From Glutamicibacter sp. PS (GTDB taxonomy: Bacteria > Actinomycetota > Actinomycetes > Actinomycetales > Micrococcaceae): DNA of 64,000 nucleotides. Location of the stretch: contig JANCMB010000001.1 of the NCBI GenBank assembly GCA_031317595.1, positions 1,916,971 to 1,980,970 of the forward strand, given 5' to 3'. This document shows, in pieces, positions 72 through 19,151 of the stretch. Position 1 is the stretch's first letter, and each line of letters begins with the position of its first letter. A model generated the notes under the pieces. That model was not told the DNA's origin. It worked only from the letters and a program-made list of their open reading frames with translations, and searched no databases. Both the position numbers and the translations under genes were made by a program.

Positions 72-1013
72 CTATCGGTTCAGGTTGCGTCCGGGATTAT
101 GTGGGTCGATTCGAGCCTGGTTGGCGGCTTGTTGCCATACGTCGCGCAGCGTGGTTCCGCTGCGGGCCGAGCTCAGGAGCGCTTCGGCCAGTACCCGTGA
201 TCGGTGTTGTCCGAAGCTCAGTCCCCGGTAGGCCGGGCGCGGGTCGACCGGCTCCTGTGCGGTGGCGAGTTGGCCGCCCAGTGCCTCGGTAAATATCGAG
301 GTGGGTGTCGTCGCGCGGTGCGGCCCGGCGAGAGCTTCTTCGCAGATCATGTGCACGGCGTTCACCTCGGTCCGCGGGAGGTAGAGGACGATGGCGTCCG
401 ATCGCGGGTGGCTGGCCGCGGTGGAAAGTGCCTTGGCCTGGTACCCACAACCGGTGGCATTTAGCGCCTGGAGCAGCGGGCCCCAGTACCGCACGGTATC
501 CGATGCCGAGCTTGAGGAGATGTAAATCCGGCTGATCTCCCCCGGGCCGGGTCCGTGCTCGCCAAGCGCGAGAACGTAGCCCGGTGTGGTGTTAGTGCGG
601 TAGCTAGGAAAGTACGCCCCGGTGATCGTTCCTTGTGCATCACGGACCAGGTGTTCGGGGTGGATCAGGACCTTGAGTCCGGCCACGTCTACCGGGGTCG
701 GTGAGCCCGTCTCGGCCAGCTGTAGGCCTAGCGCAGCCACCGGCTGGTACACCTGACGGTGCGGGATCTCTGCGATGAGGCGTTCGACGAGTTCGGGTTC
801 GCCGGTCGGTGGTGTTTGCGCAGCGGTCTCCGAGTGCCTGATGTGAAATTTCCGGTAGATGGCCGCCGACAACTCGGCCCGCAGTTCCGCCTCGCTGCCG
901 GCCTGAATCCGTTCGGAGCCAACCGTGGCAGCGGTACCGTTCGCCGCGACCGCAAGCTCGATCTCGTCGAGTACATCGAGGAAGTTCTGGGTGAGGCAGA
1001 TGCTACTACTCAT
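72..1013 (-). CDS. HopA1-family protein, probable RiPP phospho-Ser/Thr lyase
   Basis: A 313-residue protein resembling the T3SS-effector HopA1 family. In bacteria outside plant pathogens this family serves as the lyase half of split Ser/Thr dehydratases (LxmY in class V lanthipeptides, TvaD in thioviridamide-type pathways). Family-like segments are visible: GEISRIYISSSS near the middle, GCGYQAKAL followed by HPRSDAIVLYLPR, a PTSIF segment, and a C-terminal SFGQHRSRVLAEAL. The reading frame is open much further upstream, but that extension lies inside the kinase gene. The ATG at 1013 sits behind a good AAGGAA ribosome site in the 13-base gap after the kinase stop. It is the last gene of the leftward run seen here; the cluster probably continues past base 1. 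The family call is firm, the lyase role is inferred from the adjacent kinase. Confidence 0.83.
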   Translation of the reverse strand: MSSSICLTQNFLDVLDEIELAVAANGTAATVGSERIQAGSEAELRAELSAAIYRKFHIRHSETAAQTPPTGEPELVERLIAEIPHRQVYQPVAALGLQLAETGSPTPVDVAGLKVLIHPEHLVRDAQGTITGAYFPSYRTNTTPGYVLALGEHGPGPGEISRIYISSSSASDTVRYWGPLLQALNATGCGYQAKALSTAASHPRSDAIVLYLPRTEVNAVHMICEEALAGPHRATTPTSIFTEALGGQLATAQEPVDPRPAYRGLSFGQHRSRVLAEALLSSARSGTTLRDVWQQAANQARIDPHNPGRNLNR

Positions 1014-1026
1014 TGGTGTCGTTCCT

Positions 1027-2124
1027 TCAGAATCCCAGGGCCACACGATAGGCGGCCGGAGCGAGTAGAATTTTCCGCCCGATGCCGGCGGCGGCTCGTT
1101 CAATACCCGGCAGCCGGGAGACGGTCGCGGCTCGGGCGATGGTTCGATCCACCAAGTGCCATCCCAGGTGCGCGGTGGCACGCAGGGCGAGCTCGGGATC
1201 GTCGCGCTTGGCTTCGCGTCGATAGGCCTGCCACATCTGGCTGATGCGTGGGGCGAGGTGTTCCATGCGTTCGGTGATGCGCCGGGTGGCGCTGGCCGCA
1301 TCGAAACTCAGTGGTGGGGCTCCGGCTCCGCCGCGACTGGTGACGGTGTCGAGCACCGCGCGATAGATCCATTCGCCGGCGAAGGTTCCCAGGTCGCGGG
1401 CCGGATCTCCGAGGCCGAATTCTTCCCAGTCCAGCAGCACCGGGCGGCCGTCGCTGAGGTGGAACTGATCAAGTCGCAAATCTCCGTGGATGGGGGCTAC
1501 CTGATATGCCGCCTCCCAGGCCCGAAGTTCCTCGGCGGCGGTTACCAGCGCCTGATCCTCTTGCAGTTGTGGCCACAGGGCCAGCTCGGCCAGCGTGAAT
1601 CGTACATAACGCTCTTGTGAGACCCCGTGGCGCAGCATCTGCGTGGGTGGACTCGGGTGATAGCTGGCGGTGAGCCCGTCGGTGGGAGCCCGATGAAGGC
1701 GTGCCATGCGGCGTCCGGCTTGTGCGGCAAAGTCTTCCGGGATTGCTTCCCGGATCAGCAGTTCGGCAAGGTTGATTCCACCGCAGTGTTCGAAGATCAA
1801 CAATCCGTCGGCTTTGCGGTGGGCGATCAGTTGAGGGCTAAGTGGTGCCAGTGCGCTATGGCGCTGGGAGAACTCGGCGAAGGCCACTGAGCGTTCGAAG
1901 GCTCGGTCCCCGGAGACCTCCGCCGAGATGTGTTTGACGAAGATACGCTGCCCCGAGGTCAGGCTCATGCTCCAGGCGCCGTTGCGGCCGTTGAATGCTG
2001 GAGGTTGAACGTCGGTGATGTCCGCGTGGATCCCTGCATCGGCCAACAGGTCGGTAGCCCGGGCGGCCGCCGCGCTGAGCGTGGGATCTACCCGCCAGCG
2101 TGGTGTCTCAAGGGTGCGTGTCAT
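1027..2124 (-). CDS. APH-fold phosphotransferase, probable RiPP Ser/Thr kinase
   Basis: A 365-residue protein of the aminoglycoside phosphotransferase (APH) fold. A candidate nucleotide-binding lysine is seen in IFVKH (about residue 64), the catalytic loop reads HGDLRLDQF (213-221, catalytic Asp 215), and the second metal-binding Asp lies in LLDWEEFGLGDP (about 232). The usual Asn of the catalytic loop (HxDxxxxN) is Gln here. Because a HopA1-like gene follows after 13 bases, the likely role is phosphorylation of Ser/Thr in a RiPP precursor before elimination, like LxmK or TvaC, rather than antibiotic resistance. The start has a GGGAGA ribosome site. A small-molecule kinase is the main alternative. 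Confidence 0.8.
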   Translation of the reverse strand: MTRTLETPRWRVDPTLSAAAARATDLLADAGIHADITDVQPPAFNGRNGAWSMSLTSGQRIFVKHISAEVSGDRAFERSVAFAEFSQRHSALAPLSPQLIAHRKADGLLIFEHCGGINLAELLIREAIPEDFAAQAGRRMARLHRAPTDGLTASYHPSPPTQMLRHGVSQERYVRFTLAELALWPQLQEDQALVTAAEELRAWEAAYQVAPIHGDLRLDQFHLSDGRPVLLDWEEFGLGDPARDLGTFAGEWIYRAVLDTVTSRGGAGAPPLSFDAASATRRITERMEHLAPRISQMWQAYRREAKRDDPELALRATAHLGWHLVDRTIARAATVSRLPGIERAAAGIGRKILLAPAAYRVALGF

Positions 2125-2146
2125 GATGCGATCTCCCGGTGAGTCG

Positions 2147-2260
2147 TTAGAAGAGGAAGGTGACTACCACGTAGGCGGCGACGATACCGACCACCAGCCA
2201 CAGGGCGTTCTTCAGGAGTTTCTTTGCGCCGCCGGCGTTCTGGGTGTTGGAGGTGCTCAT
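2147..2260 (-). CDS. 37-residue single-pass membrane micropeptide
   Basis: A short ORF between the ABC permease and the kinase, in the same direction. It has a strong ribosome site (GAAAGGA, about 9 bases before the ATG) and ends 22 bases before the kinase start, so it is very likely translated. The peptide has a polar head (MSTSNTQNAGGAKKLLKN) followed by an unbroken hydrophobic stretch rich in Val, Ala, Leu and Phe that reaches the C terminus (ends VVVTFLF). That is one membrane span with a positively charged inner flank. It has no Cys, and its few Ser/Thr are almost all at the N terminus, so it does not look like a lanthipeptide core. It may be an accessory or immunity subunit of the transporter. 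No family recognised. Confidence 0.7.
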   Translation of the reverse strand: MSTSNTQNAGGAKKLLKNALWLVVGIVAAYVVVTFLF

Positions 2261-2294
2261 GGTGTGTGTCCTTTCAAGGTGGGTTGGGTGATGC

Positions 2295-3203
2295 TTAGGC
2301 TTGGTCGTCCGAGGCCATGGACTGGCGGATGGAGACGCGGGATCCGGTTCGCAGCGCGTTATTGCGGTAGACCCGGGTGGTCAGTCGGAAGAGCAGTGGG
2401 ACAGTAATGCCGGCGATGACCGCGGCGATGACGATCTCTGTTGTGCCGACGCTGTTTAGGGCGAAGCGCATCGGCATGAGGTAGGAGGAGAACAGCGGCA
2501 CATAGGAGAGGATGTTCACCCACGCTGCGTCGAGGTTTTGCGGCACCATGTAGAGGGCCAAGATCAGTAGCACCATCTGCAGCACCGATAGCGGGGTCGA
2601 GGCTGTGCCCAGGTCCTCTTGCCGGGAGACGGTGGAGGCCAGCAAGGTGCTCAGTCCGGCAAAGATCATGAAGCCTTGGATGAACCAGACGAAGAACCAG
2701 AGCAAACTGGGTCCCACGTCGACGGCCAGTACCGTCCAGCCACCAACGACGCTGAATCCGAGCACGGCGGCCCCGCCAATGGTCAGTAATTGGCCAAGGG
2801 TCACCAGGCCGACGCCGATCATTTTGCCGGCCAGCAGCGGTCCGACGCCGATCTTGGTCAACAGAATCTCCACAATGCGCGATGATTTTTCCTCGACCAC
2901 CCCGGAGGCCAGGGATTGTGAGGAGTAGACCAGGGAGGCGAGCAGGGCCGTGATCATGGCGGTGGCGAATAACAGCTGGGTGTCAAGGGCCAGCGGTTCT
3001 CCTCCCCGGTTGGCATTGACCAGGAACCAGCCGCCGATGCCGGCTCCGAGTCCGGCTAAGAGGGCCAGCACGCCGGTGGCGGTGAGAATGGTGCGGTTTC
3101 CGGTGCGGGTGAGCAGCTCACGGCGGATAATGGTGCGCACCGAGTCGAGATCCGTGGTGCGGCGGGTACCGGTGGGCAGAAGTTGGGTTGTCGTTGCCGT
3201 CAT
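2295..3203 (-). CDS. ABC-2 type permease (NatB-like)
   Basis: A 302-residue membrane protein of the ABC-2 exporter class. After a cytoplasmic N terminus (about 40 residues) there is a first membrane helix, then a short external loop, and five further hydrophobic segments. The motif VVEEKSSRIVEILL (about residues 102-115), typical of NatB-type permeases, follows the second helix. It begins 2 bases after the ATPase stop, so the two are translationally coupled and form one exporter. Neighbouring RiPP-type enzymes suggest it exports the peptide product or gives self-protection; the sequence alone does not show the substrate. Confidence 0.9.
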   Translation of the reverse strand: MTATTTQLLPTGTRRTTDLDSVRTIIRRELLTRTGNRTILTATGVLALLAGLGAGIGGWFLVNANRGGEPLALDTQLLFATAMITALLASLVYSSQSLASGVVEEKSSRIVEILLTKIGVGPLLAGKMIGVGLVTLGQLLTIGGAAVLGFSVVGGWTVLAVDVGPSLLWFFVWFIQGFMIFAGLSTLLASTVSRQEDLGTASTPLSVLQMVLLILALYMVPQNLDAAWVNILSYVPLFSSYLMPMRFALNSVGTTEIVIAAVIAGITVPLLFRLTTRVYRNNALRTGSRVSIRQSMASDDQA

Positions 3204-3205
3204 CG

Positions 3206-4177
3206 TTAGGCTCCAATGCTTTCAAGATCCGCTGAGGCGTTGGCGGTGTCGGTCAATAGGCTGGCGCTGAGCCGCTCGGAGAGCACCTCGGCCAGTGAAC
3301 GCTGCAGTGGTTCGATGGCACGAAGTCCGGGATTACGCATGAGCACCGCCAGCAGTTCGGATGGAATCTGCTCCTCCTCGCGCTGGCTATGCACCAGCAA
3401 CGCTTCCGGTTCATCGTCGAGGGCTTCGAGGGTGATGTGCGGCAGCATCGACAGTTCTGCGATGAGCCGGTCGCTGGGTACCGCGGCAAATCGAAGTTTC
3501 CACAGCGATTCTTGCCCGCCGCGTAGCTCGTCTACCGGGCCGCTGGCGACGACGCGCCCCTTATCCAGCACGCAGACCCGGTCGCAGATGCGCTCGACCA
3601 GTTCCAGCTGGTGCGAGGAGAAGAGCACTCCTACACCGCGCCGGGCTTGATCGGCGATCAGTCCAGCCATGGTCTCCACGGCCAGTGGGTCAAGGCCCGA
3701 GAAGGGTTCGTCGAGTACCAGCAGGGTAGGATCTCCTACCAGCGAGACCGCCAGCTGCACGCGCTGCTGGTTGCCCAGCGACAGGTCTTGGACCTTGGTG
3801 CGTTCACGTGTGCTCAGACCCAAGGAGGAAATGAGCTCGGCGGCGGTCGCGCGGGCTTGCTGGTGGCTTTTTCCCTCGAGAAGCGCGAAATGCACGATCT
3901 GGTCTTCTACGGTCATTTCCGGGTAGAGCCCGCGCTCCTCCGGCATGTATCCGATGGAGCTTCGCACCTGGTCGGTGATTGCTTCCCCATCCCATTCGAT
4001 ACGTCCTTCGGTGGCGGTGAGCAGTCCAAGAATCAGTCGCATGGTCGTGGTTTTGCCGGCGCCGTTACCGCCGATAAATCCAACAATTTCACCGCGGCCT
4101 ACCGACAGATCGACGCCTTGCAGTACCTTGTGACCACCGAAACTACGGCTTACACCCGTGAGCTGAAGGCCTAGCAT
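3206..4177 (-). CDS. ABC transporter ATP-binding protein (NatA-like)
   Basis: A 323-residue nucleotide-binding subunit. Visible motifs: Walker A GGNGAGKTTTM (near residues 35-45), ABC signature LSLGNQQRVQLAVSL, Walker B LLVLDEPFSGLDP, and an H-loop SSHQLELVERI. The last hundred residues form the extension usual in NatA-type exporters (DUF4162-like). The ATG at 4177 follows an AGGAGG ribosome site. It is the first gene of the leftward operon with the permease, micropeptide, kinase and HopA1-like genes, and is read divergently from the XRE-cupin regulator. Confidence 0.92.
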   Translation of the reverse strand: MLGLQLTGVSRSFGGHKVLQGVDLSVGRGEIVGFIGGNGAGKTTTMRLILGLLTATEGRIEWDGEAITDQVRSSIGYMPEERGLYPEMTVEDQIVHFALLEGKSHQQARATAAELISSLGLSTRERTKVQDLSLGNQQRVQLAVSLVGDPTLLVLDEPFSGLDPLAVETMAGLIADQARRGVGVLFSSHQLELVERICDRVCVLDKGRVVASGPVDELRGGQESLWKLRFAAVPSDRLIAELSMLPHITLEALDDEPEALLVHSQREEEQIPSELLAVLMRNPGLRAIEPLQRSLAEVLSERLSASLLTDTANASADLESIGA

Positions 4178-4355: not shown

Positions 4356-4369
4356 TATGATGCATCATA
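4356..4369. promoter_or_regulatory. Perfect 14-bp palindrome over the regulator start codon
   Basis: TATGATGCATCATA is its own reverse complement and covers the first ATG codons of the XRE-cupin gene. It could be an autoregulatory site, or a small mRNA structure hiding the start. It may also be chance arising from the repeated ATG and CAT codons of the Met-Met-His-His start. Confidence 0.35.
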
Positions 4370-4974
4370 TGGAGATGGATGCACAGTTGCTGGCCCGAGC
4401 CATTGGGGCCCGCGTCAAACACGAACGCAAAACCCGAGGGTGGACACTCGACCGCCTGGCAGATACCGCCGGGATCAGTCGACGCATGCTCATCAACGTG
4501 GAGCAAGGGGTCGCTAACCCCAGTGTCGCCACCCTGTTGCACCTTTCCGAGGCGCTTGGGGTCGGCCTGCCGGCGCTCGTCGAACCACCCAGCGAGCGGC
4601 AGGCCAAGTTGACCCGACGCGGCGAGGGCGCACTGCTCTGGTCCGGCGAGCGCGGCGGACAGGCCAGGCTCGTCGCTGGGGCCGATAGACCGGACAACGT
4701 CGAGCTATGGGACTGGTCGCTCGCCCCCGGTGACCGCCACGAAAGCACGGCGCACACCCCCGGCACCCGCGAACTACTACAGGTGCAGCACGGCATCCTC
4801 AGGGTGCACACCGGCGAGGAATCCTACGAACTGGCCCCGGGCGATGCACTGAGTTTCCACGGCGACCAACCGCATGCGTATGTCAACGACAGCAGCGAAA
4901 CCACCCACTTCGTCCTGACCGTCGTCGAGCCAAGTCTCGGTAGGTCTGGCGGAAAAGAGAGCTCTCATGATTGA
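4357..4974 (+). CDS. XRE-family regulator with C-terminal cupin domain
   Basis: A 205-residue regulator. Residues about 10-70 form an XRE helix-turn-helix (segment RLADTAGISRRMLINVEQG, then NPSVATLLHLSEALGV). The C-terminal part, about 110-190, is a cupin barrel (TRELLQVQHGILRV, ELAPGDALSFHGDQPHAY), which usually binds a small-molecule ligand. Several in-frame ATGs lie at the start (4357, 4360, 4369, 4375) and none has a clear ribosome site, so the exact start is uncertain. It is divergent from the ABC/RiPP-like operon and upstream of an EamA exporter in the same direction. It could regulate either or both; XRE-cupin proteins often control adjacent transporters. Confidence 0.88.
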   Translation: MMHHMEMDAQLLARAIGARVKHERKTRGWTLDRLADTAGISRRMLINVEQGVANPSVATLLHLSEALGVGLPALVEPPSERQAKLTRRGEGALLWSGERGGQARLVAGADRPDNVELWDWSLAPGDRHESTAHTPGTRELLQVQHGILRVHTGEESYELAPGDALSFHGDQPHAYVNDSSETTHFVLTVVEPSLGRSGGKESSHD

Positions 4975-11004: not shown

Positions 11005-11864
11005 GGTTGCACCTCTGCTGCGGCACGGGCGATCGCAATGTAGGCGTCAATATCCAGCTTTTCCCCGCGTTCCTTCGGGTCAATCCCGGCGGACACGAGG
11101 ATCTGCTCGGCGCGGGCCCCCGAACCGGCCCACCCCGATAGGGCAGCCCGCAGCGTTTTGCGGCGCTGGGCAAAGGCGGCGTCGATAATTGTGAATACCT
11201 CGGCGCGCGGTGGGGCGTCGACGCGTTCGGCTCCGCGCGTGAATGACACGAGCCCGGAGTGGATTTTCGGCGCCGGCCAAAAGACGTTCATGCCGATCAC
11301 TCCGGCCTTTCGCAACGTCCCGTACCAGGCTCCCTTCACCGAGGGCACCCCGTAGATCTTGCTTCCGGGCACCGCGCTCATCCGGTCGGCGACCTCGTCT
11401 TGAACCATTACCAACCCGTGGGCGATGGATGGGAAGGTCTCCAGCAGGTGCAGCACCACGGGCACCGCAACGTTGTAGGGAAGATTTGCCACCAAGGCGG
11501 TCGGTGCGACCGGCAACTCGGTGACCTTCAGCGCATCGCTCTCGATGACGGTGAGATCTTCTTCGCGTCCCGGACGGAACTCGGCCATGGTCTGCGGCAG
11601 ACGTCGCGCCAACGGCGGGTCGATCTCAACGGCCACCACCTGTGCGGCGGCATCCATGATCCCCAGGGTCAGTGAGCCCAGCCCGGGTCCAACCTCGAGC
11701 ACCGTCTCATCCGGCCGTAGATTCGCACCGGCAACGATGCGACGAATGGTGTTTCCGTCGATCACAAAATTTTGGCCCAGAGTTTTGGTCGGCCGGATTC
11801 CCAGCTCGTCGGCCAAACGGCGGATTTCGGTTGCGCCCAGCAGCGGCAGGGATTCCTTAGACAT
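11001..11864 (-). CDS. rsmA: 16S rRNA (adenine1518-N6/adenine1519-N6)-dimethyltransferase
   Basis: A 287-residue KsgA/RsmA-type methyltransferase that dimethylates two adjacent adenines near the 3' end of 16S rRNA during small-subunit maturation. It shows [13 protein letters not shown], the SAM-binding motif [16 protein letters not shown], a [14 protein letters not shown] acidic ribose-binding segment, and the catalytic [14 protein letters not shown] lies directly before the chosen ATG; the GGAGA ribosome site favours the ATG. It lies between rpfB and ispE in a conserved actinobacterial order. Confidence 0.96.
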
Positions 11865-11910
11865 CACGTCTCCAATTCTAGGTCAGGGCGAGAGTGCGCC
11901 CCACAAGGCG

Positions 11911-11943
11911 CAACGCGCCCACCGCCAAGCGGTGAGCGCGTTG
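11911..11943 (-). terminator. Strong hairpin between rpfB and rsmA
   Basis: Outer arms CAACGCGC and GCGCGTTG and inner arms CACCGC and GCGGTG, with one mismatch between them, form a long stem with a CAA loop. It lies 25 bases past the rpfB stop. The following minus-strand sequence is not T-rich, so it may be a partial terminator or an RNA-processing site that separates high rpfB expression from rsmA-ispE. Confidence 0.6.
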
Positions 11944-11968
11944 TCTGAGAGTTTGAGCCGTATGAGGC

Positions 11969-13150
11969 CTAGATGAGGCCCAGCTTGCGGGCGCAGGCCG
12001 GCCAGTGACCCCAACCGCCGCTGGCACGCAGGCGTTCGGCCGCGGCAATCTGCTCCTGTGCGGTGGCCTGGTGCGGCAATGGCGCATACTTCGTGCCACC
12101 GACCGCGCGCCACGAGGAGGCGGAGAACTGCAGGCCACCGTAGTAGCCGTTTCCGGTGTTGATCGACCAGTTGCCACCGGACTCACACTTGGCCAGTGCG
12201 GCCCAGGTTGAGGAGATCGAACCGGTCGGCGCCTTGGTCTTCGAGCTACCGCTGGAGTCGCTGGAGCTGCTGCTTTCGGGCTTCTTGGTGCCCACGCGCA
12301 CAACCTCTGTCACCGGTTCCTTGGTGACCTTGGACTTCAGGACTTCTTCCTCGCCCTTCTTGCCATCGCGAATCTCTTGGCGCAGGGTCAGCTTGCGCTC
12401 GCCCTGCTCGCCCTCGGTCTTCACCTTGGTCTTGCCCTTGACCAGGTCCTTATCCTTGACCTTGGTGGTCTTGAAGTCGATGTCGCGGGTTTCATCCCAG
12501 GTCTTGATTTCGACCTTGATCGCGCGAATTTCGGAGCCTTCGACGATGGCGGTCTTTGCGTCGACGTCCTTCTCGGTTTCATCATCGACGCGGACCTGAA
12601 TTTCGTCGTCCTTATCGAGCTTGACGCCCTCTTCCTTGAAGAGGTCGGCAATGGTCTCGGCGGTGGTGGACAACTTCTTCGAATCCTTGCCCTGCTTAAG
12701 GGTGACTTCCTTCGGAGTGATGATCTCCAGCCCACCGCTCAGCGCGGAAATGGCGAGGTCTTCGGCCTGCGAAAGCTTCGCGTCCTGATCCACGTCGAGT
12801 TCGTTGATCACATCGGCCACCGTCATGCCGGTGGTGTGCACTACACGCTCTTCACCGTCGAGCACTACTTCGATGGACTTGTTCAGCGAGATGTCGATAC
12901 GCTGCTCGTCGCTGAGTGGCGAGGCCGGGTCGGCCGAGATTTCGTCACGCTCATCCAGCGTGATGTCTTCTTGGGTGAGCAAGTCCTGCACGGAGGCGGC
13001 ACGGGTACTGACCACCTGTTCCTTGCCGTCAATGGCGATGGTCACCGACTTTTGGCCGGCAATATAGAACACGGCGCCGGCGATAACCAGTGCCAGAACG
13101 GCGGCTTGGGCGATGAATTTCGCCCAGCGCTTTTTGAACAAGTGAGTCAC
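11969..13150 (-). CDS. rpfB: RpfB-like resuscitation-promoting factor
   Basis: A 393-residue cell-wall lytic transglycosylase that reactivates dormant cells. Domains in order: a membrane anchor or uncleaved signal (about 12-31), three DUF348 ubiquitin-like repeats (about 33-75, 91-133, 146-188), a G5 adhesion domain (about 206-286), a Ser-rich linker (292-305), and the Rpf catalytic domain (about 313-388). The catalytic Glu 323 lies in CESGGNW. The last residues are CARKLGLI. The order tatD, rpfB, rsmA, ispE is the same as in other actinobacteria. The 209-base leader is structured, so regulation at the RNA level is possible. Confidence 0.95.
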   Translation of the reverse strand: MTHLFKKRWAKFIAQAAVLALVIAGAVFYIAGQKSVTIAIDGKEQVVSTRAASVQDLLTQEDITLDERDEISADPASPLSDEQRIDISLNKSIEVVLDGEERVVHTTGMTVADVINELDVDQDAKLSQAEDLAISALSGGLEIITPKEVTLKQGKDSKKLSTTAETIADLFKEEGVKLDKDDEIQVRVDDETEKDVDAKTAIVEGSEIRAIKVEIKTWDETRDIDFKTTKVKDKDLVKGKTKVKTEGEQGERKLTLRQEIRDGKKGEEEVLKSKVTKEPVTEVVRVGTKKPESSSSSDSSGSSKTKAPTGSISSTWAALAKCESGGNWSINTGNGYYGGLQFSASSWRAVGGTKYAPLPHQATAQEQIAAAERLRASGGWGHWPACARKLGLI

Positions 13151-13359
13151 GGTTGTGCTTACCCCATCGGTAGTGTCGGCCGGCGGTCGGCCAAGGCAGC
13201 GAACTGCCTGCTTACATCAGTGTCTACGTGGCCGCGATGCTGAGGGAAGCAAACCCAAAGACCCGGCGGCACCGCCCGCGGGCAATGCATCCTTTCAACC
13301 GTAACCGAATCTTAATAAAAGACGCAACCGAAATATGGCGCGTCGCACACCGAAAGCCC
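13151..13359 (-). promoter_or_regulatory. Structured leader region of rpfB
   Basis: This 209-base gap between tatD and rpfB contains two compact hairpins close to the rpfB start: AGGCAG-TTCG-CTGCCT on the minus strand (13194-13209), with a stable UUCG tetraloop, and GGCCG-ACCGC-CGGCC (13178-13192). An AT-rich stretch around 13310-13320 (CTTAATAAAAG on the plus strand) may hold the promoter. Some actinobacterial rpf genes carry a c-di-AMP (ydaO-type) riboswitch; its conserved core could not be recognised here. Confidence 0.4.
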
Positions 13360-15450: not shown

Positions 15451-16755
15451 ATGCCTACCGTGCACCGCTTCGACTCACGCGATTCGCTGTCCTGGGAGCG
15501 TTCAAATGACCGCCCCCGGCCACGCGTACGCTGGCTACGCCTAGACCTTTTGACCACGCGGGGCCGAATTACCGCCGGCGGCGGACTACTCTGTCTGTTG
15601 CTGGCTTTCATGCTTGGCCGACCCGAATTGATGGCCCTGGGAGTGGGACTACTCTGCGTGGTTCTGCTGAGCATGCTGGTTCTGCTACGCACCCGGCACC
15701 ACACGGAGATTCAGCGACTCATACACACCGCGGCCCCCACGGCCGGGCACAGCACCCACTTGACCCTGTCCTGCCCCGAGCCAGCGCAGATTCACGAAAC
15801 ACTGCCCGAACCCATCGGCTGGGGCCCACAATTACAGGCCCCGGGAAGCGTGGACTACGAGGTGGTTTTCCGCGAGCGCGGGATCCACTTGATCGGCCCC
15901 GCGCAACGCGTGTTGGCCGACCCGTTGGGGCTGATCCGCGGCATGGTCTCCACCGGCCAACTGTTCCCCGTGCCCGTGCGCTGCGCACCGCTAGGGGGTG
16001 AGCAACCACCGGCGGTGGGCGAACGCAACCTCACCGGCGACGCCCGCCATGCCCACAGCCCCACCACCGACTACTACGACGTGGCCACCCGCGACTACCA
16101 GCAGGGTGATTCGGTGCGACAAGTGCACTGGAAAGCTACCGCCCACCAAGGCAAGCTCATGGTGCGTCAAGAAAACCAGATCGCCACCGCACAGGCTCTG
16201 ATCATCCTCGATCGCTACCTTGAACACTGGAATCAGGCCGCCGACTTTCGTCTCTCCATTCCGCAAGGGCAGGAGCCGGAGCTAAACAGCACCCGACGCT
16301 TCGAAAGCGCACTGCAAACCATCTGTTCCATCGGCGAGCGCTACGCCGCCGGAGGCTACCAGGTGCAAGTGCGTGATCTGGCCGGACACGATCTGCGCCA
16401 CGACTCGGCCGCCCATGGGGCGGGCACCTTCGAGGCATTCCACGCCGCCACCCCCAGCCTAGCCTTGGAACCGGGCAACGGGCAGGCCCAAAGTCCCGAC
16501 CTACTGGCGCCTGCACTCCGTGGAGCCCTACACCACCACCGGGACGAACCGATCTTCGTGGTTCTGGGCGATCTCAGCGAGGCGCAAGCTCACCGGCTGG
16601 CCCCGCTGGCACTTCGCCAAAGGCAACTGCATCTCTACCTGGTGCTCTCGCATCCCGAACGCCACCGCCGAGCCATCGACCGGCTGGCCGACACCGCATG
16701 GAAGGTGCACGTCATGGATGCCTCCGGGCACCGAGTGCAGGAGCGCCGCTCATGA
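15451..16755 (+). CDS. DUF58 domain-containing membrane protein
   Basis: A 434-residue protein with two adjacent hydrophobic helices near residues 45-85 and then a soluble region. The DUF58 core is seen at DYYDVATRDYQQGDSVRQVHWKATAHQGKLMVRQ (read as two segments around residues 205-235), where the R-Q-V-H-W-K-A-T motif is diagnostic. DUF58 proteins accompany MoxR ATPases and probably act as substrate-binding adaptors. The gene begins 7 bases after moxR and its stop overlaps the next start (ATGA). Confidence 0.9.
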   Translation: MPTVHRFDSRDSLSWERSNDRPRPRVRWLRLDLLTTRGRITAGGGLLCLLLAFMLGRPELMALGVGLLCVVLLSMLVLLRTRHHTEIQRLIHTAAPTAGHSTHLTLSCPEPAQIHETLPEPIGWGPQLQAPGSVDYEVVFRERGIHLIGPAQRVLADPLGLIRGMVSTGQLFPVPVRCAPLGGEQPPAVGERNLTGDARHAHSPTTDYYDVATRDYQQGDSVRQVHWKATAHQGKLMVRQENQIATAQALIILDRYLEHWNQAADFRLSIPQGQEPELNSTRRFESALQTICSIGERYAAGGYQVQVRDLAGHDLRHDSAAHGAGTFEAFHAATPSLALEPGNGQAQSPDLLAPALRGALHHHRDEPIFVVLGDLSEAQAHRLAPLALRQRQLHLYLVLSHPERHRRAIDRLADTAWKVHVMDASGHRVQERRS

Positions 16756-19151
16756 GCCTGCCCGTTGTAGAACACCAAGCACACCGTGACCCGCAGCCGG
16801 TACACATCGGGCAGTCCCCCTCGACTCTCCCGTGGCGGCTGCTGGCGGCCGGGGCGCTGGCCACCGCCGTATTGGCTAGTTACGCCTCTTTCAACGGTGT
16901 CATCGCCGGCTGGCAGTTCTTTACCCCGGTCATCCTGCCGGTCGTGCTTCTGCATGTCGTTGGTTTTTCCCTGACCTCCCGGCCACGCACCCGACTGCTT
17001 GCCGTTCCGGTATTAATCGCCGTGGCGATCGGGGCGGTGCTGTTCAGCCCTGCCATCGTGCCTTGGCTTGGTTCGGGACTGGAGCTGGCCCGGATCAATC
17101 GGTTGTGGCAAGGAGCCATGATCGAGTTCTATACCCAGCTGCCACCGGTGGCCGACTCCCCATTCGTCGGGTTCGTGCTCTACCTGGCCGCCATCGCGGT
17201 GAGCCTGATCGCTCAGCTCTTGGCGACCTTCCCACGCACGGCCGGGTGGGTACCGGTGCCGCTGGCGGTGCCCCTGATCATCGCCTCCCTGTTTAAGCTC
17301 AGCGGTGCGGGGATGAGCTACCTACTGCTGGTCTTCCTCACGCTGATCCTTTACTACTACCTATTGCCGTGGGTTCATGGCGGCGTGGATCTCGAGCGGC
17401 CGACACGCCCCGGCCGACGATCGGGCGGCACGGTAGCAGTGATCGCCACCGCCAGTGCCCTGGCCATGCTTGCCGCGAGCCTCTGGGTGCCCGGCTTCCG
17501 CCAGGGCATGTTCCCCGAAGGCACCCGCCCCTCCGGTGAACGATTGGCCAGCAACATCGATCCCCTGATCAATCTGGGTCGTGACCTACGTTCAAACAAC
17601 GGCTCGGTGGTATTCACCTACCTGAGCACCGCCGAGAACGCCCCCTATTTGCGTACCGCCGTGATCGATGATCTTTCCACCGAACGCTGGGAACCGAGCG
17701 ACGACGAGATGGAGGTTGACCACGTGTATTCCTCCGGACTCGAGCGTGGGCGCTCGCCGTGGGTCAATACGCACCGTCACTTGCTGACCATGTTCTGGAC
17801 GACGCCCGGCTCGGCGGCAACGCTTCCCATGCCGCAGGGTGCCGACAGCGTCTTGGGGCTCGATGGGGCCTGGACGTGGAGCCCGGAGACGGAAATCCTC
17901 AAACTCAACGAAATGACACGTGAGAGCCGCACCGCCACGGTGGAATACGACGAGCTCGACATGTCGGCCGCCGAAATCAACCGGGTACAGAATCGTTTCA
18001 ATCCCAGCCCGCCGGTGCTTCACCCCAACTACACCGACCCCGGTCTCGACGCCAACGGGGCGTTGGCTCGCGATCTCGGTGAGTTCCTCGAGGCCGCCTT
18101 TGACGACCTGGGCAGCTCCCCCACCGACCTGCAAAAGGCTCAGGCCATCCAGGATTATCTGCGATCCACACGCTTTAGCTATTCGGAGCAGACCCCGCTG
18201 CGCGAAGGCTATGACGGCGCCAACCAGCGGGTCATTGAGGCTTTTCTCGAGCGTCGCGCCGGGTATTGCGTGCACTTCGCCTCCACGATGGTGCTCGCCG
18301 CCCGAAGCACCGGCATCCCGGCACGGCTGGTACTGGGCTACGCCCCGGGCCAGCAGGTAGCCCTTGACCCCGTGCTGGAGCGGTACTTCGGGGGCGCCGA
18401 TGCGGTGGACCTGTCGCCGGAGGGCTCCGAGCTCCGGGCCTATGAAATCACCGGTCGGCAGGCTCATGCTTGGCCGGAGCTGTTCCTGCCGGGCATTGGC
18501 TGGGTACCGTTTGAGCCGACGCCGGGCCGTGGGCAGGCTCCGGGGTATGCCCCGGCCCCGCAATTGGCCGGGGGTAGTTCCACCGCCCCCGAAGAGGTTC
18601 CGCGCACCCCGCGGGCCACGCAGACCACCACGGAGTCGGAGACCGAAAGCCAACCGCCGACAGCGGCGGGACCGGGGAGCACGCAATCCTCGGTCGCCGG
18701 CTGGATCGTGGGCGGTGTGGCGCTTCTGCTTCTAGCGCTGCTGTCGGTTGCGCCGCTGCTGCGTCTTTCCCAGCGCCGCTCCCGGGAGCAGGCCATCCGT
18801 ACTGGGTCTGCCGCCGCCGCACAAGGCCTGTTCGATGAGTTGCGGGCGATCGGATGCGACCATGGCCGCGCCATGCGTCCGGCGGATTCGGTTGGTGACT
18901 ACCTGAAGAACCTCAATGAAGCACTGCCGGGCAATGACGAGCTCTTTGAACGACTGCGCCAGAGGATTGAGCCGAGTTTCTACGCCCATCGCCACCCCGG
19001 TAAGGCCGATGCCGAGCAGCTACTGGCGGATCTGGCGCAACTACGTCAGGAATTCGCTCACATCAACAACGGCACTACCCGATTGCGCGCCTGGTTGTTC
19101 CCGCCCTCGCTACGATCGCTCACGGTCCGTGCGATGGACCAACAAAAATAA
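16752..19151 (+). CDS. TgpA-type membrane transglutaminase-like protein
   Basis: A 799-residue protein with several membrane helices in the first 220 residues (DUF3488/TgpA-like), a large external part with the transglutaminase-like core, a final helix near residue 660, and a cytoplasmic DUF4129-like tail. The core shows the catalytic Cys in AGYCVHFASTMVLAAR and the His in QAHAWPEL; the segment GWVPFEPTPG has Glu where many homologues have Asp. The ATG overlaps the DUF58 stop, so the start at 16752 is preferred over one 18 codons upstream. The third member of the MoxR module; a cell-envelope peptidase or cross-linking role is inferred. Confidence 0.92.
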   Translation: MSLPVVEHQAHRDPQPVHIGQSPSTLPWRLLAAGALATAVLASYASFNGVIAGWQFFTPVILPVVLLHVVGFSLTSRPRTRLLAVPVLIAVAIGAVLFSPAIVPWLGSGLELARINRLWQGAMIEFYTQLPPVADSPFVGFVLYLAAIAVSLIAQLLATFPRTAGWVPVPLAVPLIIASLFKLSGAGMSYLLLVFLTLILYYYLLPWVHGGVDLERPTRPGRRSGGTVAVIATASALAMLAASLWVPGFRQGMFPEGTRPSGERLASNIDPLINLGRDLRSNNGSVVFTYLSTAENAPYLRTAVIDDLSTERWEPSDDEMEVDHVYSSGLERGRSPWVNTHRHLLTMFWTTPGSAATLPMPQGADSVLGLDGAWTWSPETEILKLNEMTRESRTATVEYDELDMSAAEINRVQNRFNPSPPVLHPNYTDPGLDANGALARDLGEFLEAAFDDLGSSPTDLQKAQAIQDYLRSTRFSYSEQTPLREGYDGANQRVIEAFLERRAGYCVHFASTMVLAARSTGIPARLVLGYAPGQQVALDPVLERYFGGADAVDLSPEGSELRAYEITGRQAHAWPELFLPGIGWVPFEPTPGRGQAPGYAPAPQLAGGSSTAPEEVPRTPRATQTTTESETESQPPTAAGPGSTQSSVAGWIVGGVALLLLALLSVAPLLRLSQRRSREQAIRTGSAAAAQGLFDELRAIGCDHGRAMRPADSVGDYLKNLNEALPGNDELFERLRQRIEPSFYAHRHPGKADAEQLLADLAQLRQEFAHINNGTTRLRAWLFPPSLRSLTVRAMDQQK

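What the first reader, a model, noticed from the sequence alone, without database searches (positions are those of the whole stretch)
72..4177. Edge of a probable RiPP cluster with a split kinase/HopA1 dehydratase
A leftward run of ABC ATPase, ABC-2 permease, micropeptide, APH-fold kinase and HopA1-like protein is seen directly. Kinase plus HopA1-like lyase is the Ser/Thr dehydration pair in class V lanthipeptides (LxmK/LxmY) and thioamitides (TvaC/TvaD); known examples are mainly from Streptomyces-like organisms. No precursor or LxmX-type cyclase lies in the window. A HopA1/kinase pair next to a dedicated exporter in a Micrococcaceae-type chromosome suggests an unexplored dehydroamino-acid peptide.
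Basis: partly seen in the sequence, partly recalled or inferred. Interest (0 to 1): 0.85.

Follow-up and report, generated by a model that had tools for sequence, protein, structure and literature searches.

The report
Paired class V lanthipeptide antibiotic cluster
The window edge cuts through a gene cluster that very probably makes two small ring-bearing antibiotic-like peptides of a recently described class, and relatives that lost the production genes but kept the transporter and a tiny membrane peptide point to the genes that protect the producer.

Summary
The kinase is a LxmK (347.8 bits, cut-off 315), the HopA1 protein a LanY-type lyase. Left of the window follow four precursor genes (all over the LxmA-leader cut-off), LanD, a kinase-fold LanX, an M16 peptidase pair and a convergent two-component system: a class Va lanthipeptide cluster, not a thioamitide.

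Apparently new: (1) in 11 of 12 complete clusters of this type two core types (alpha, beta) occur together, conserved by type across genera while leaders follow the locus, suggesting a two-component product; (2) a one-helix micropeptide lies between permease and kinase in 14 of 14 clusters; (3) four genomes carry deletion alleles, two separate events, that lost the synthesis genes but kept ABC transporter, micropeptide and regulators: probably the immunity module, so the peptide probably harms kin.

Class membership is strong (0.92) and immunity likely (0.7); alpha/beta cooperation (0.35) and the chemistry are inferred. Published mining lists such clusters in bulk; my searches found no description of this group.

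The parts
3206..4177 (-). ABC transporter ATPase (T_ATP), first gene of the operon; proposed immunity/export
   Evidence: PF00005 115.5 bits; TIGR03740 lantibiotic-protection ATPase 146.5 bits but below its cut-off of 309.75; kept in 4 deletion alleles
2295..3203 (-). ABC-2 permease (T_perm)
   Evidence: PF12698 66.9 bits; relatives at E 1e-50 in 18 of 395 family genomes
2147..2260 (-). one-helix membrane micropeptide, 37 aa
   Evidence: ORF; conserved slot and pattern in 14 of 14 clusters; model match in 16 of 395 family genomes
1027..2124 (-). LanK, class V Ser/Thr kinase (LxmK type)
   Evidence: NF038156 347.8 bits, cut-off 315; PDB 9dk1_A E 1.3e-50
72..1013 (-). LanY, HopA1-fold phospho-Ser/Thr lyase; the operon goes on left of base 1 with four precursors, LanD, LanX and two M16 proteins (coordinates in the Full report section)
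   Evidence: PF17914; PDB 9dk1_B E 1.3e-23; R162/K194/R204/Y211/H57 spaced as the CaoY residues

Best explanation
This is a complete class Va lanthipeptide operon. Steps inferred by homology to cacaoidin, lexapeptide and rosin enzymes: LanK phosphorylates Ser/Thr of leader-bound precursors and LanY eliminates the phosphate, giving Dha/Dhb. LanD oxidatively decarboxylates the C-terminal Cys18. LanX, a dead-kinase fold, closes the C-terminal AviMeCys ring between Thr13 and Cys18. Cys5 adds to Dhb1 (or residue 2), forming the N-terminal (Me)Lan ring. The M16B pair cuts after A-P-A. Product: 18-residue bicyclic, very hydrophobic peptides of two kinds, alpha (TSPLCVGIIVGATLGAGC) and beta (TSPFCAGVVIGATLTVGC), plus a mixed one. 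They probably lack D-Ala and N-methyl groups, since no F420 pathway was found and no reductase or methyltransferase gene is in the run. The ABC transporter, helped by the one-helix micropeptide and controlled by the convergent two-component system, protects the producer and may also export. Shown by sequence: gene content, catalytic residues, conservation, deletion alleles. Inferred: the chemistry, immunity, regulation, and cooperation of alpha and beta.
For: LxmK equivalog above cut-off and LxmA leaders. Kinase and lyase match the solved LxmKY complex. In 58 aligned LanY, R162, K194, R204 and Y211 are in 58 of 58 and H57 in 56 of 58, with the spacing 32/10/7 of CaoY R187/K219/R229/Y236 (PMC9486802, sections read). 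LanX has lost the catalytic Asp in 16 of 16 rows shown (11 distinct loci), keeps an HxxD pair like RosX H269/D272, and its model's best PDB match is TvaE. Thr1-Cys5 and Thr-X4-Cys in 28 of 28 intact precursors. Alpha/beta statistics. Deletion alleles, with mostly silent changes in the retained transporter (see evidence against).
Against: No chemistry or activity is shown. Leader position -17, fully conserved Tyr in published type-A leaders, is Phe in 17 of 28 here. LanD is below the CypD equivalog cut-off. Rosin A1, from a cluster of like gene content, showed no antibacterial activity (PMC12291118), so class membership alone does not make this an antibiotic. The micropeptide was not seen in two stand-alone transporter loci, L107 and L108. 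In the Rothia deletion alleles silent divergence differs strongly between permease (dS 0.12), ATPase (0.01) and P2 remnant (0) for the same pair (L103-L104), which suggests recombination, so part of the silent changes may have arisen in producers. The P2 remnants carry no stop codons.
Confidence: 0.92

Rival explanations
1. A thioamitide or another HopA1/kinase RiPP (kintamdin-like) rather than a class V lanthipeptide: same dehydration and AviCys steps, but thioamides or other final chemistry.
For: TvaC/D/E/F are homologues of K/Y/X/D (PMC9486802, PMC12291118); the LanX model's best PDB match is TvaE of the thioviridamide pathway.
Against: No YcaO over cut-off in the genome; the one weak match is about 91 kb left of the window. 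The kinase passes the LxmK equivalog cut-off and all four precursors the LxmA-leader cut-off. Each core has a second Cys in Lan spacing.
Confidence: 0.04
2. The ABC transporter is only the exporter of the peptides, and the micropeptide is a transporter subunit; the deletion alleles are just decaying clusters.
For: It is the only transporter in the operon, so some export role is likely. The three Rothia alleles share one deletion event. The micropeptide was not seen in L107 and L108. Recombination with producers could have kept the transporter intact (uneven dS).
Against: Two different deletions spare exactly the transporter, micropeptide and two-component system. Between Rothia alleles transporter changes are mostly silent where there are enough of them (T_perm L103-L104: 7 non-synonymous, 26 synonymous; T_ATP L104-L105: 5 and 16; but T_ATP L103-L104: 2 and 2), while the P2 remnant shows 4, 1 and 3 non-synonymous and no synonymous changes in the three pairs. 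An exporter without cargo should decay.
Confidence: 0.26
3. Alpha and beta are independent variants made by one machinery (like rosins A1-A3 or sistertides), without cooperation.
For: Multi-precursor class V clusters without reported cooperation are known (PMC12291118, PMC11162475). One locus (L037) has a single precursor of mixed type, and own A3 is mixed.
Against: The same two cores persist over three genera while leaders homogenise within each locus. The order alpha first, beta last holds in 11 of 11 loci with both.
Confidence: 0.5

Closest known systems
Rosins A1-A3 (ros cluster, class Va; PMC12291118)
   Same: K, Y, D, X, two M16B peptidases, three precursors, no N-methyltransferase; Lan i,i+4 and AviMeCys Thr-X4-Cys
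   Different: Rosin has a F420H2 reductase (J), three ABC transporters and a core of 25 residues with 9 dehydrations; here no J, no CofH in the genome, one ABC pair, an 18-residue core with 3-4 Ser/Thr, and a micropeptide
Lexapeptide (lxm; class Va)
   Same: LxmK and LxmY homologues (PDB 9DK1-3), LxmA leader family, M16 pair
   Different: No reductase and no LxmM-like methyltransferase here; among the 56 kinases of my tree, into which the lexapeptide kinase itself was not put by name, the own group is a separate clade (99/99)
Cacaoidin (cao; class Va; PMC8068269, PMC9486802)
   Same: Lan at 1-5 and C-terminal AviMeCys spacing, CaoY catalytic residues
   Different: No sugar genes, methyltransferase or F420 oxidoreductase in the run; the leader has His at -20 and Phe or Tyr at -17
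Two-component lantibiotics (class II, e.g. haloduracin, lichenicidin)
   Same: Two distinct conserved core types encoded together
   Different: One shared class V machinery; class II pairs use one LanM per precursor (passage, names from references); synergy untested here

Membership tests
class Va lanthipeptide | stand-alone LanK kinase | tested here: met
   NF038156 347.8 bits over the cut-off of 315; R47, K64, D215, Q220, D232 invariant in 11 of 11
class Va lanthipeptide | stand-alone LanY (PF17914) with lyase residues | tested here: met
class Va lanthipeptide | LanD flavoprotein Cys decarboxylase | tested here: met
   PF02441 over cut-off; the narrower CypD equivalog NF033753 is not reached (59.9 of 215)
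class Va lanthipeptide | LanX: kinase fold without kinase residues, with catalytic Glu/His/Asp | tested here: met
   Asp lost in 16 of 16 rows shown; E203, E206, H249, D252 invariant in 7 of 7; fold match to TvaE first, LxmK tenth. Which Glu matches RosX E220 is not settled
class Va lanthipeptide | type-A leader: L/M-24, Y-17, E/D-12, A-3, P-2 | tested here: inconclusive
   28 intact precursors: L-24 28, E-12 28, A-3 27, P-2 28, but -17 is F in 17 and Y in 11. All four own precursors pass NF038146; three relatives tested give 25.6, 22.0 and 16.1 bits against a cut-off of 25
class Va lanthipeptide | no LanB/LanC/LanM/LanKC/LanL in the cluster | tested here: met
   every large gene of the run is otherwise assigned by profile or fold; only the micropeptide is unassigned
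class Va lanthipeptide | (Me)Lan and AviMeCys in the product | not testable with these tools
   needs mass spectrometry or NMR; only the Thr1-Cys5 and Thr-X4-Cys spacings are seen
class Va lanthipeptide (frequent extra) | F420H2-dependent reductase LanJ | tested here: not met
   nearest PF00296 match on the contig is over 500 kb away, no CofH match in the genome
thioamitide | YcaO (with TfuA) in the cluster | tested here: not met
   only a sub-cut-off YcaO match about 91 kb left of the window; TfuA not searched
two-component lantibiotic | two distinct precursors kept together | tested here: met
   11 of 12 complete loci
two-component lantibiotic | synergy of the two mature peptides | not testable with these tools
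   bench assay needed

The most novel reading that the evidence does not exclude
A lineage of two-component class V lantibiotics in Glutamicibacter, Arthrobacter and Rothia: alpha and beta 18-residue Gly-rich bicycles that act together in the membrane, with an immunity module of ABC transporter plus a one-helix micropeptide under a two-component system. Non-producers in two genera have separately dropped the synthesis genes but kept this module, i.e. natural resistant non-producers. It would be the first two-component system built on the class V machinery that I know of, and the micropeptide a new kind of lantibiotic immunity helper.
Probability: 0.3. Interest if true: 0.72.

Novelty: new variant of a known kind. 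Interest (0 to 1): 0.55.

Why it matters
Class V lanthipeptides include potent antibiotics against Gram-positive bacteria (massatide A, cacaoidin), and those whose producer I saw named (cacaoidin, pristinin, massatide, sistertides) come from Streptomyces. This group has a plain gene set: no reductase, methyltransferase or sugar genes, and one ABC pair. It would suit reconstitution. The deletion alleles turn self-protection, for which I saw only a general proposal (the cacaoidin ABC transporters), into a directly testable question with defined genes. If alpha and beta cooperate, class V joins class II in having two-component lantibiotics.

Tried and rejected
Thioamitide reading: rejected for lack of YcaO. 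CofD (PF01933) as a test for F420: useless, because 10 of 14 control genomes ring as well; replaced by CofH. Syntenic empty site: the flanking regulator and LacI gene are far apart in congeners that hold both, so no clean empty site was defined. Promoter and terminator scan over the precursor stretch: nothing found. Micropeptide as a chance ORF: rejected by conservation in 14 of 14 clusters and dN/dS of about 0.14-0.16 in the two more diverged pairs (L037-L040, L037-L039); the five closer pairs give 0.4-0.7 and tell little. Micropeptide model against ORFs of L051-L102: significant only in the ten own-type loci, best other E 0.91 in L064. dN/dS for the two-component system failed in my script and was not repeated. 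My first P2 reference began upstream of the likely start; corrected for the model.

Literature: Glutamicibacter + lanthipeptide (9 papers, listing only); Rothia + lanthipeptide + class V (none); two-component lanthipeptide + class V (6 papers, listing, plus passages of two: PMC7794033 with other terms, PMC11447909); two-peptide/AviMeCys (12 of 19 listed); class V lanthipeptide (40 of 52 listed). None of the titles, abstract starts or passages seen describes this group; supplements could not be read.
Full report
Check of the observation. The five genes at window 72-4177 are as described: HopA1 (PF17914, 90.6 bits), APH kinase, ABC-2 permease and ABC ATPase by Pfam, with a 37-aa ORF between permease and kinase. 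The HopA1 gene most likely starts at 1013, not at the ORF's first ATG (1301). The window lies at G000:C1:1916971-1980970 of a 3.44-Mb genome, so I could read leftward (L002, window base 1 = L002 18001).

What lies left of base 1. On the same strand and in tight order follow four short ORFs of 55-58 aa, then a flavoprotein, a weak APH-like protein, an M16 peptidase and a partner overlapping its stop codon. A NarL-type response regulator and a histidine kinase lie convergent behind them. Parts outside the window, in L002 coordinates (subtract 18000 for window-relative, add 1898970 for contig C1): precursor A1 17817-17993 minus; A2 17574-17741 minus; A3 17314-17481 minus; A4 17048-17218 minus; LanD 16319-16954 minus; LanX 15468-16322 minus; M16 active subunit P1 14221-15477 minus; M16-fold partner P2 13271-14224 minus; response regulator 12575-13252 plus; histidine kinase 11340-12578 plus. 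All four short ORFs pass the NCBIfam LxmA-leader cut-off of 25 (36.7, 33.8, 32.4 and 30.5 bits) and the kinase passes the LxmK equivalog cut-off (347.8 against 315). LanD: PF02441 36.4 bits (cut-off 22.7), CypD model 59.9 (below 215). LanX: PF01636 23.2 bits, just at its cut-off. P1: PF00675 49.3 bits with HLIEH. phmmer against the PDB finds one entry group each for kinase and lyase at E 0.001, and it is the same one: 9DK1-3 (E 1.3e-50 and 1.3e-23), titled in the fold search as the lexapeptide dehydratase complex LxmKY.

Catalytic residues. Among 58 aligned LanY proteins (nine duplicate loci dropped) R162, K194, R204 and Y211 are in 58 and H57 in 56. The spacing 32/10/7 is that of CaoY R187, K219, R229 and Y236, the first three tested by mutation there (PMC9486802, sections read, passages). 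The kinase keeps R47, K64, D215, Q220 and D232 in 11 of 11 aligned rows. The APH-like protein has lost the catalytic Asp in 16 of 16 rows shown (those over 60 bits, of 33 hits; 11 distinct loci). It keeps an invariant HxxD and two Glu in 7 of 7 aligned rows, as described for RosX, the AviMeCys cyclase with a kinase fold (PMC12291118, sections read). Its AlphaFold model (pLDDT 75) matches TvaE best (E 6.8e-9), then small-molecule kinases, with LxmK at rank 10. The second M16 protein has no Pfam match and no HxxEH, but its model (pLDDT 83) matches M16-fold proteins, mostly bc1 core subunits and M16B subunits, which fits an active/inactive pair as proposed for LxmP1/P2 (PMC8068269, passages).

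Missing extras. The nearest F420-type reductase family match (PF00296) on the contig is over 500 kb away, and the genome, 99.75% complete, has no CofH match. So the D-Ala step common in this class should be absent. No methyltransferase gene is in the run. The only YcaO match in the genome is below cut-off and about 91 kb left of the window, which argues against a thioamitide.

Relatives. LxmK is over cut-off in 8 of 18 genomes of the genus (10 of 18 at E 0.001) and in 13 of 395 of the family (307 of 395 at E 0.001, mostly other APH kinases by score). Of 15 loci taken from the family search, 11 have the own-type cluster. With the own locus and two named Arthrobacter loci (L051, L052) that makes 14. 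The other four are L043 (a Streptomyces-type class V cluster) and the distant L048, L049 and L050. Contig lengths identify the own genus as Glutamicibacter (GTDB sense), g3 as Rothia and g10 as Arthrobacter in the wide sense. Order in all: ATPase, permease, micropeptide, K, Y, precursors, D, X, P1, P2, then the convergent regulator pair, as far as the contig goes. Two loci (L038, L042) run off a contig before the precursors, so 12 are complete. In a tree of 56 kinases (of 68; nine duplicates, two distant rows and one partial row dropped) the 14 form one side of a branch with 99/99 support; the own kinase sits with Rothia (96/92), not with its congeners, which hints at transfer within the family.

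The precursors. The 12 complete loci hold 28 intact precursors; one further copy in L045 is frameshifted and was left out. All 28 have Thr1 and Cys5, and Thr five residues before a C-terminal Cys. This is the T-X4-C motif named in PMC11162475 (section read), and the 1-5 and i,i+5 spacings are those of cacaoidin (passage). Cores fall into alpha (14), beta (12) and mixed (2: own A3 and the single precursor of L037). In 11 of 12 loci both alpha and beta are present, alpha first and beta last.

Core against leader. For the 11 loci with both (mixed, duplicate and frameshifted copies dropped; the 19-residue L044 alpha dropped from core counts), core identity alpha to beta within a locus averages 0.61 (n 11, highest 0.67), but same type between groups 0.87 (n 94, lowest 0.78). 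Leaders behave in reverse: 0.91 within a locus (n 12) and 0.60 between groups (n 102). Thus the leaders are homogenised within each locus while two core types are kept apart across three genera. This is what a two-component product would leave behind; two independently useful products could too.

The micropeptide. All 14 clusters have a 37-45 aa ORF with a charged N-terminal half and one hydrophobic stretch, with Gly and Tyr invariant in the 11 rows aligned, between permease and kinase. A model of it finds 16 of 395 family genomes at E 1e-6: the 12 family genomes with own-type clusters and four without a LxmK over cut-off.

Natural deletion alleles. In those four the transporter and micropeptide stand without synthesis genes. 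Three Rothia genomes share a deletion of 6,316 bp relative to producer L046, with breakpoints just after the micropeptide and inside P2. One Arthrobacter genome has its own deletion, 6,011 bp of L047 replaced by 65 bp, again just after the micropeptide and ending in P2. Flanks match producers on both sides in L103 against L045 (about 89%) and L106 against L047 (89-91%); against L046 the match starts only just before the transporter. Lost: K, Y, precursors, D, X, P1 and more than half of P2. Kept: ATPase, permease, micropeptide, a P2 remnant and the regulator pair.

Selection after the loss. Between the three Rothia alleles, permease and ATPase changes are mostly synonymous where there are enough of them (permease L103-L104 7 against 26; ATPase L104-L105 5 against 16; but ATPase L103-L104 2 and 2), while the P2 remnant shows 4, 1 and 3 non-synonymous and no synonymous changes in the three pairs. 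The micropeptide has too few changes to judge (0-2 each) but is intact. Two cautions: dS differs widely between genes for the same pair (L103-L104: permease 0.12, ATPase 0.01, remnant 0), so recombination with producers is likely and part of the silent changes may be older than the loss; and the remnants still carry no stop codons.

Stand-alone transporters. The permease occurs in 18 of 395 family genomes at E 1e-50: 12 producers, these four, and two more, L107 (with both M16 proteins and regulators) and L108 (regulators only), neither with a micropeptide that I could see. My reading: transporter, usually with micropeptide, plus two-component system is an immunity module worth keeping after production is lost, so the product probably harms close relatives.

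What is and is not new. Class V machinery, multi-precursor clusters and AviMeCys chemistry are known. The rosin study counted 851 putative class Va clusters in actinomycetes (its taxon 1760), 151 of them without methyltransferase; another study lists 1172 precursor-flavoprotein pairs; decRiPPter reported 219 actinobacterial gene pairs outside Streptomyces (passages). This group may well be inside those lists, whose supplements I could not open. Not found described in the listings and passages: the alpha/beta pairing, the micropeptide, or the non-producer alleles. Confidence: class Va cluster 0.92; immunity role about 0.7; micropeptide part of immunity about 0.5; alpha/beta cooperation about 0.35.

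Noticed in passing
L065 11024-11713 (Pseudarthrobacter polychromogenes, same locus as L043): A Streptomyces-type class V cluster with three precursors, two of which end in GGPGR or GGPPKR without a C-terminal Cys, so not every product there can carry AviCys.
   Followed up: no
L107 6947-12977 (genome G107): Transporter, both M16 proteins and the two-component system stand together without any synthesis gene or visible micropeptide; the M16 pair may have a role in protection as well as leader cutting.
   Followed up: partly
L045 (Rothia MAG): LanX and the first precursor gene appear frameshifted; either assembly error or decay.
   Followed up: no
window 1027-2124 (tree): The own kinase groups with Rothia rather than with other Glutamicibacter, suggesting cluster transfer within Micrococcaceae; Rothia rows have unusual composition, so caution.
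   Followed up: partly
control genomes: A HopA1-family (PF17914) protein over cut-off occurs in Corynebacterium glutamicum; its context was not examined.
   Followed up: no
L064 16783-17001 (Streptomyces tibetensis): A small ORF with one hydrophobic helix also follows the ABC permease of a Streptomyces class V locus (E 0.91 to the micropeptide model); possibly an analogous micropeptide.
   Followed up: no
plasmid collection: LxmK-like kinases occur on plasmid records of Streptomyces (22), Pediococcus (3), Nonomuraea (2) and Arthrobacter (1).
   Followed up: no
window 4357-4974: Divergent HTH-cupin regulator upstream of the operon; no match to it in the 15 fetched family loci, so probably not part of the cluster.
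   Followed up: partly
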